A stretch of DNA of 64,000 bases from Kazachstania africana CBS 2517 (taxonomy: Eukaryota > Ascomycota > Saccharomycetes > Saccharomycetales > Saccharomycetaceae), in contig NC_018942.1 of the NCBI RefSeq assembly GCF_000304475.1, positions 558,001 through 622,000 on the forward strand. The letters run 5' to 3'. Below, one piece after another: positions 46,413 through 49,400 of the stretch. Within the stretch, counting starts at the first letter, position 1; every line of letters begins with the position of its first letter. Both the position numbers and the translations under genes were made by a program. Under the pieces are notes generated by a model. The model made no database searches and was not told the DNA's origin. It worked only from the letters and a program-made list of their open reading frames with translations.

Positions 46413-49400
46413 ATGATAGTATGTATCACCATGTATCTAAGACTTTACCATTTGCTTATTGTTGGATAGTAGCTAGGGTATCCACGTCTCGAACCCTACA
46501 TCATTTTGCAACGAGAAGTTAGCCCTCATCCGCCCAACCCTAAACCAATTTTTCTTCTGGTTACGAAGATGAGAGAGATGATGTCTCCCCTCTGCGCGGT
46601 TTTCTGACATGACATTTTCTTTTTTTTTTTGTTCCGTTTTTCTGATTCTCGGCCACTGTGGGAAAAGACACAGAAGAATCCGCAGCCAGTAATTCTATTT
46701 CTATCATTTCTTCTTTTCCTCGCCATAGAAAATTAATTTAACGTATGGTCTCCCATCCCTTCCTCTATGGACATTTCTCTGGATCAGTCAATGATCCGTA
46801 TATTATTTTTTCCGCTGTTTCATGGCTTTGATCTCGGGTAACTGAATGTGGAATACTCGACTCAATATGGCTTTCTCTCTCTTTCTCTCCCTCGGGGTGG
46901 CCTATAGCTACGCTGTGCTGTGTGCTGCTGCTGCTGTCGTGTTCGTATTTGTCGTTGCGTCGTTTGATGATGATATTGGAAGAATCGGTAGACAATCAAT
47001 CAATCAATCAATCAATCCTCTCAATCGTTGGTTGATGAGGCCCTTCCTCTTTCTTTTTCTGCAAAAAAATTGCTGCAGTTTTGCCCATATTTTACCATTC
47101 AAAAAAAAACAAAAAAAAATAACTCAATCCTCGATGAAACAGAATTTATTTTCTCAAGCCATCCCATACTGATGATGATGATACTTTGAAATTTCACAGT
47201 CTCTATTTTTTCTTCTTAGGCTTCTTTTGATTTCTCTCGGTTTTTTTTTTCTTTTGCCCTGTTTTTTACTAATGAGATCAATCCTAAAAACTTTTCTTAC
47301 TCTTTTCATCTTATTCTTTTAAAACTCGTATTCGATAGGGAAATCATACACTTAATTATTATAATTATTTCTAATTCCCACTACTGCTATTTCAACTGAT
47401 AATATTAAAAATCTAAAAAAAAGTCTTTTTTAAAACCATCCAAATTCAATAATACTAACAATACCATTACTTTCTTTTCCTCTCTTCTTTTCTTTCTATA
47501 GAATAACTACTATTCTCAAACTAATACTAATACTACACAAGCCTCTAATTCAAGTAGACCTCCTTCTAACTCAATCATGCCATATAATCATCAACCACAA
47601 TTATCTGTAAACTCAATTCAATCATTGGTGGAGCCAATAACTCCTCCTCCATTAGGTCAAATGAATAATAAGAGAAATCATCAAAAAGCTCATTCTTTAG
47701 ATTTGTCAGGTTTTAATGATTTCATATCTTCAACTGCTAATCAAATTAATGGTAATTTACCTCTAATTAATGAATTTGATCTAAATTTTAATAATAGTGA
47801 TGATTCCACTACTGTTACTACTACCACCAATTCATCGTCCCTCTTTCAATCAAAAAATTCTCATTCTTCAAGAAATGGTAATAATAGTACACATACTGCT
47901 ACGAATAGTACTAGTAGTACTAATAGCTCAATCATGGAAATCACTTCAATGCCTTTGGAAGAATTAGACTACATCAAGTTAGCAACAGATCAATTCGGTT
48001 GTCGTTTCCTACAAAAGAAATTGGAATCAAATTCAATTACTGAATCAAATTTAGTTAGAGATTTAATGTACGAACAAATTAAACCTTTCTTTTTAAATTT
48101 AGTATTAGATCCCTTCGGTAACTACCTCATTCAAAAATTATGTGAGTATCTTACTACTGATGAGAAGACTTTTTTAATCAATTCCATTTATCCTCACGTC
48201 TTTAGAATCTCAATTAATCAATACGGTACAAGATCCCTACAAAAAATTATTGATACTGTGGATAATGAGACTCAAATTGATCTCATAGTAAAAGGTTTCT
48301 CACAAGAATTCACTTCCATCGATCAAGTCGTAACATTAATTAATGATTTGAACGGTAATCATGTCATTCAAAAATGTATCTTCAAATTCCCATCTTCAAA
48401 ATTCGATTTTATCATCAATGCAATCATTGAAAAAAATAATATTATAGCAATCTCAACCCATAAGCATGGCTGTTGCGTCTTACAAAAATTATTGAGTGTC
48501 TGTACTTTACAACAAATCTTTAAAATCTCTTTAAAGATTATTCAATTCTTATCAGGTTTAATGAACGATCAATTTGGTAATTATATCATTCAATTCCTAT
48601 TAGATATTAAAGAATTGGATTTCTATTTTTTGATTGAGATCTTTAACACTCTTTTAGTCAATGATATTTGTCAATTATCATGTCTGAAATTTTCATCAAA
48701 TGTCATTGAAAAATATATTAAAAAATTGTTCAGAATAATCCAAGACACAATTAATGGTAACATTTTACCAAATATGAATGATGATATCATTAATAATTTG
48801 ATGCGTATTATTTTAAACATTATAGAATTCTTTACCATCAATTTAAATATCTTAATTAGAGATAATTATGGTAATTACGCTTTACAAACTTTATTAGACG
48901 TGAAAAATTATTCTTTGTTACTAGAATATCCACAATCAAATACAACAGCGAAGAATCCAAATTTAATCAATTTTACCACTGAATTTAGTTTGAAAATTGG
49001 TAATTTGGTAATGTTAACTAAAGAATTATTACCAAGTATTAAAACTACTTCTTACGCTAAGAAAATTAAATTAAAGGTTAAAGCTTTCTCCGATGTTACA
49101 GGTTTGAATTTTAATAATGACATTAAAAATGGCAGACCAACTTCAAGTAATGACAACAGACAACAACAACAGCAACAGCAACAGCAACAGCAACAAAATA
49201 AACATCATCAACGTCATTTTTCTCTACCTGCAAATGCTTACTACAGAAGAAATAGTAACGCAATGAATGCAGCTCCAACAATTCATCAATCAATGAGCAA
49301 TTTCTTAGGTTCAAATAATATTACACCAGTAAATAATAACGATAATAACAATTATTTGACATCAATGCAGAATTTGTATCAACAACCTTCATTAACTCCA

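What the first reader, a model, noticed from the sequence alone, without database searches (positions are those of the whole stretch)
46413..47510. MPT5 begins with a six-base coding exon and a 1,083-nt intron
The exon 2 frame is closed by TAG at 47499-47501, yet it stays coding-like for 25 codons before the first internal ATG (47577). TACTAAC at 47453 and an AG at 47501 make a clean 3' splice region. The only well-placed consensus 5' site I found is GTATGT at 46419, directly after ATG ATA. Splicing keeps phase and yields an N-terminus starting MINN, the same as remembered S. cerevisiae Mpt5. A two-codon exon is invisible to ORF finders, so automated annotation would give a protein 27 residues too short and would miss a promoter about 1.1 kb upstream.
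Basis: partly seen in the sequence, partly recalled or inferred. Interest (0 to 1): 0.75.

Follow-up and report, generated by a model that had tools for sequence, protein, structure and literature searches.

The report
Ordinary tiny-first-exon intron in MPT5
This yeast's MPT5 gene, which makes an RNA-binding protein, very probably starts with a six-base coding piece followed by a long intron that gene finders overlook; baker's yeast MPT5 is built much the same way, so it is a useful annotation fix rather than a surprise.

Summary
The sequence is as described. ATGATA|GTATGT lies at 46413-46424, TACTAAC at 47453-47459 and TATAG ends at 47501. Exon 2 joins in phase to the Puf-repeat ORF, giving 730 aa instead of 703. 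By published S. cerevisiae matrices this donor and acceptor score best in the upstream region. Of 105 ORFs in 264 kb, only this one has an in-phase consensus intron. The 25 codons before the internal Met look coding; those before the 13 other genes with open leaders do not. Introns after 2-3 nt of coding exon were found in 6 of 6 ribosomal-protein loci chosen as controls. S. cerevisiae MPT5 is itself listed with a 3-nt first coding exon, AUG (PMC3226532), and one intron (PMC4937481): a known kind of feature. Corrections: a second in-phase GTATGT exists at 46119 (54-nt exon 1, weaker score); the Ile of 'MINN' is coded before the intron here but, by the published table, after it in S. cerevisiae; the extension resembles that of S. 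uvarum no more than shuffles do. No RNA evidence was available.

The parts
46413..46418 (+). exon 1 coding part, ATG ATA (Met-Ile)
   Evidence: sequence; in phase with exon 2; A at -3 of the ATG
46419..47501 (+). spliceosomal intron, 1,083 nt, phase 0
   Evidence: best donor and best acceptor of the region by S. cerevisiae matrices; only in-phase consensus intron among 105 ORFs
46419..46424 (+). 5' splice site GTATGT
   Evidence: matrix score 11.28, top of 45130-47452
47453..47459 (+). branch point TACTAAC
47460..47501 (+). pyrimidine-rich tract and 3' splice site TATAG, no internal AG
   Evidence: matrix score 10.03, top of 45150-47699
47502..49688 (+). exon 2 with stop: rest of MPT5/PUF5 (728 aa)
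   Evidence: Pfam PUF E 1.1e-43; S. cerevisiae MPT5 structure 5bym E 3.6e-187
47502..47576 (+). 25-codon N-terminal extension of exon 2, before the internal Met
   Evidence: open; codon log-odds 4.05 bits, highest of the 14 open leaders among 105 ORFs
47577..47579 (+). internal Met, invariant in 12 of 12 aligned sequences; intron-blind start
46119..46124 (+). rival 5' splice site GTATGT (would give a 1,383-nt intron)
   Evidence: score 8.93
46065..46118 (+). rival 54-nt exon 1 (18 codons)
   Evidence: not favoured

Best explanation
This is the MPT5 (PUF5) orthologue of a post-WGD yeast, very probably Kazachstania africana. Transcription starts upstream of 46413. The pre-mRNA carries a 5' UTR, ATG ATA, a standard U2-type spliceosomal intron (GTATGT, TACTAAC, TATAG; 46419-47501), and one long exon. 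Splicing joins Met-Ile to exon 2 and yields a 730-aa Puf protein. Unspliced RNA would encode only 18 codons from that ATG before a stop. Shown from sequence: signals, phase, open frames, coding-like extension, no second close copy found. Inferred: actual splicing, the start of transcription and use of the 46413 ATG.
For: Anatomy. Highest-scoring donor (11.28) and acceptor (10.03) of the region; 47 sites in 528,000 nt (264 kb, both strands) match or exceed the donor, itself included, and 72 of 30,257 AGs the acceptor. 1 of 105 ORFs has the full in-phase architecture and 1 of 105 the acceptor part. Extension codon score 4.05 bits against -1.08 to -12.21 for the other 13 open leaders and a median of 2.5 for the first 25 codons of 78 long ORFs. 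Positive control: 6 of 6 chosen ribosomal loci in this genome show GTATGT or GTACGT introns after 2-3 nt of coding exon. S. cerevisiae MPT5: first coding exon 3 nt, single intron, RT-PCR of its RNA at low expression. S. uvarum P0013 and S. kudriavzevii P0014 are annotated MINNEPF..., with 24 residues between the two Mets, against 25 codons of exon 2 before the internal Met here. The longest ATG-free gap in 45122-47501 (141 nt) ends at 46413.
Against: No RNA data. A second in-phase donor exists. The extension aligns with S. uvarum's no better than shuffles (810 of 2,000). The published S. cerevisiae junction lies one codon earlier than the one here. The strongest T-A skew step is at 45895, not at the intron start. 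The ATG-free gap is barely longer than the next two (138 and 136 nt). Eight of 12 aligned proteins are annotated from the internal Met. One S. cerevisiae record, P0021, reads MVVIINNEPF... after a long upstream stretch, which the 3-nt exon does not explain. The intron is longer than the six control introns (156-478 nt).
Confidence: 0.9

Rival explanations
1. Same acceptor, but the donor is GTATGT at 46119 (alone or as an alternative), giving an 18-codon exon 1 from ATG 46065 and a 1,383-nt intron.
For: Open, in phase, full consensus hexamer.
Against: Lower matrix score, 8.93 against 11.28; ATG 46065 has T at -3 and abuts a TATATATA run; S. cerevisiae exon 1 is only AUG.
Confidence: 0.04
2. No intron: a promoter within 46425-47500 drives an mRNA that starts translation at the internal ATG 47577 (703 aa), perhaps alongside the spliced form.
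For: That Met is invariant in 12 of 12 aligned proteins, and strong conservation begins there; 8 of 12 are annotated from it. A at -3.
Against: Coding-like 25 codons upstream; best-in-region splice signals; S. cerevisiae MPT5 is a known intron gene.
Confidence: 0.04
3. The intron is real but the ATG at 46413 is not the main start: initiation at 47577 dominates, so the intron works as a 5' UTR intron.
For: Invariant internal Met; the extension is not alignable with S. uvarum's beyond chance.
Against: Codon score of the extension; 46413 is the first ATG after a 141-nt gap and is in frame after splicing.
Confidence: 0.02

Closest known systems
S. cerevisiae MPT5/PUF5 (YGL178W) intron
   Same: Orthologous Puf gene, single intron at the very start of the coding region, tiny first coding exon; similar stretch before the internal Met (24 residues between the two Mets in the S. 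uvarum and S. kudriavzevii records, against 25 codons of exon 2 here)
   Different: Published first coding exon is AUG alone (3 nt), here ATGATA (6 nt), so the junction lies one codon apart. A predicted intronic RNA structure is reported there as conserved in Saccharomyces sensu stricto; no sign of one was seen here by single-sequence folding or Rfam
Yeast mini-first-exon genes (RPS24, RPS17, RPS27, RPL19)
   Same: Intron splits or directly follows the start codon; the same signals in this genome
   Different: Shorter introns in the six loci tested here (156-478 nt); ribosomal-protein genes

Membership tests
MPT5/PUF5 orthologue | Puf repeats and best match to S. cerevisiae Mpt5 | tested here: met
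   Pfam PUF 1.1e-43; among solved structures 5bym (MPT5) 3.6e-187 against 3.2e-50 for the next chain
MPT5/PUF5 orthologue | Syntenic position (ATG1-like kinase, kinase, MPT5, BUD13) | tested here: inconclusive
   Pfam domains of the neighbours fit, but the S. cerevisiae order is recalled and was not checked by a call
MPT5/PUF5 orthologue | Not confused with a second MPT5 copy | tested here: met
   6 matching places in the genome, next best 37% identity (only 9 candidates were scored)
Saccharomycetaceae spliceosomal intron | GTATGT, TACTAAC, YAG in order with normal spacing | tested here: met
Saccharomycetaceae spliceosomal intron | Spliced RNA junction | not testable with these tools
   no transcript data in reach
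Orthologous MPT5 intron | Same intron position as in S. cerevisiae | tested here: inconclusive
   One codon apart by the published 3-nt exon; no yeast DNA was found to align
Orthologous MPT5 intron | Structured intronic RNA as predicted in S. cerevisiae | tested here: inconclusive
   120-nt sliding windows of this one sequence give z between -1.58 and 2.20; no Rfam family in the intron at gathering score. The S. cerevisiae structure itself was not modelled; it is reported for sensu stricto species

The most novel reading that the evidence does not exclude
The intron began as a 5' UTR intron in front of the ancient start at the internal Met. Start codons placed just before the donor later recruited the exon 2 leader as coding sequence, with a junction differing by one codon between this lineage and Saccharomyces, and two N-termini may still be made.
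Probability: 0.15. Interest if true: 0.4.

Novelty: new member of a known kind. Interest (0 to 1): 0.17.

Why it matters
It corrects a gene start (27 residues, promoter about 1.1 kb further upstream) for a conserved RNA regulator. It also warns that other yeast MPT5 records may lack a mini-exon: 13 of the 120 listed relatives start exactly with MSYNHQPQ, at the internal Met. Mechanistically it is ordinary.

Tried and rejected
snoRNA or structured RNA in the intron: the two Rfam matches in the window at gathering score are tRNAs elsewhere. The five weak matches at E up to 10 in 45122-47600 are far below their cut-offs, best E 0.37. Folding z-scores are unremarkable.

DNA of other yeasts: scans with six peptide patterns of P0013 found nothing in viral contigs, and 15 pattern matches but no relative in genome contigs, so junctions could not be compared at DNA level. 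A second protein search limited to residues 1-80 returned 32 proteins, all already listed.

Similarity of the extension between species as evidence: rejected, no better than shuffles. Composition step at the intron start: rejected.

The relaxed scan (ORFs of at least 60 aa, variant signals) gave one further locus, C3 about 553,506-555,368 on the minus strand, with a 72-codon ORF; not pursued, probably chance.

Literature: 'MPT5' with 'Kazachstania' gave 0 papers, 'MPT5 intron' 1, and MPT5 with intron and YGL178W 2. The 2014 intron survey lists 226 K. africana introns and does not name MPT5 in its main text. Its supplement was not readable here, so this intron may already be listed there. No claim is made that it is unpublished.

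What was read: PMC4937481 passages; PMC4202332 abstract, passages, section 8 part 1 and section 13; PMC3226532 passages and section 17 part 1; PMC5499181 passages; PMC368173 passages. Parenteau 2008 was not held and is known here only through PMC4937481. Other papers were seen as search listings only.

Full report
What is there. The window lies in a genome of 11,130,140 bases in 12 contigs, which fits Kazachstania africana (11.1 Mb, 12 chromosomes, PMC5499181); the species is inferred, not proven. The ORF at 47577-49688 with its upstream extension encodes a Puf-repeat protein whose best solved relative is S. cerevisiae Mpt5 (5bym, E 3.6e-187). No second close copy was found in the genome (6 matching places, next best 37% identity). 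Neighbours with kinase, ATG1-like and Bud13 domains fit the S. cerevisiae order as I recall it.

The splice anatomy. ATG ATA (46413-46418) runs into GTATGT (46419). TACTAAC is at 47453-47459 and the first AG after it is at 47500-47501, 42 nt on, after a pyrimidine-rich tract without AG. Exon 2 opens in phase for 25 codons before the internal Met. I scored sites with the published S. cerevisiae matrices (PMC3226532 Tables 3 and 4). Donor 46419 scores 11.28 and acceptor 47501 scores 10.03, each the best in the region searched; the next donor, 46119, scores 8.93 and the next acceptor, 47219, scores 9.87.

Chance. A scan of 264 kb (105 ORFs of at least 150 aa; introns up to 1,500 nt, exon 1 up to 60 codons) for an in-phase ATG, GTATGT, TACTAAC and AG leading into the ORF found MPT5 only, with two donor solutions. 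Relaxing signals and ORF length added one doubtful locus. In shuffles, 77 of 5,000 had a donor at most 2 codons after an in-phase ATG, 421 had any, and 49 of 5,000 had an acceptor. TACTAAC alone occurs within 400 nt upstream of 4 of 105 ORFs on the sense strand and 3 of 105 on the other. The 25-codon extension has a codon log-odds of 4.05 bits. Of 105 ORFs, 14 have 25 open codons upstream, and the other 13 all score below zero; the first 25 codons of 78 long ORFs have a median of 2.5 (the training set includes the MPT5 ORF itself, a slight circularity).

Positive control in the same genome. Four ribosomal families, chosen because their S. cerevisiae genes have 2-3 nt first coding exons, were located. 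All 6 loci show a GTATGT (5) or GTACGT (1) intron after AU (2 loci) or AUG (4 loci), with introns of 156-478 nt; the branch point is TACTAAC in 5 and CACTAAC in 1 (L029 lay on the other strand, gave nothing and was rerun reverse-complemented). The architecture is therefore at home in this genome. It also shows that my strict scan, which asked for TACTAAC and GTATGT only and needed an ATG upstream of the donor, would miss some true introns.

Comparison with other yeasts. The first protein search listed 120 of 1,921 relatives. S. uvarum and S. kudriavzevii MPT5 are annotated MINNEPF..., with 24 residues between the two Mets. Of the 120, 13 start exactly with MSYNHQPQ at the internal Met. In the alignment of 12 sequences that I chose, 8 start there, 3 database rows (P0011, P0013, P0014) carry residues before it, and the 12th row is the window. 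P0043 and P0053 also carry extensions, and P0021 of S. cerevisiae reads MVVIINNEPF after a long upstream stretch, which I cannot reconcile with the 3-nt exon. Just before the internal Met stands Ser-(Ile/Leu) in the window, P0011, P0013, P0014, P0021 and P0043, but not in P0053; other long N-termini in that list do not keep a clearly matching Met and were not counted. The extension as a whole does not align with that of S. uvarum better than shuffles (810 of 2,000).

What is already known. S. cerevisiae MPT5 is listed with a 3-nt first coding exon, AUG (PMC3226532 Table 2). It has a single intron, RT-PCR on its RNA at very low expression, a predicted RNA structure conserved in sensu stricto species, and a stress role attributed to Parenteau 2008 (PMC4937481). 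A survey found 226 introns in K. africana without naming MPT5 in its main text. The finding is therefore most simply the orthologous intron. By the published table the Ile of MINN is encoded after the intron in S. cerevisiae but before it here: either a one-codon shift, a separate origin of the exon 1 codons, or an annotation difference. DNA of the relatives was not in reach to decide.

Verdict. The six-base-exon model is the best one (0.9). The alternative donor and an intronic promoter with the internal Met remain possible minor or additional forms. Without RNA the splicing is inferred. Interest is low, because both the architecture and this very gene's intron are known in baker's yeast.

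Noticed in passing
window 53195-53905 (+): BUD13 reads from MSLHSYLSKTYG without interruption; S. cerevisiae BUD13 has a 5' intron (recalled), so the intron may have been lost here.
   Followed up: partly
window 46048-46063: A TATATATA run upstream, a possible TATA box for an MPT5 transcript starting before 46413; several short upstream ORFs lie between 46065 and 46277.
   Followed up: partly
P0021 (S. cerevisiae MPT5 record, 945 aa): Its model reads a long upstream stretch and MVVIINNEPF, at odds with the 3-nt AUG exon; cause unknown.
   Followed up: no
G000:C3 about 553506-555368, minus strand (L011): A relaxed scan found a TACTAAC and possible donors before a 72-codon ORF; probably chance, unchecked.
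   Followed up: no
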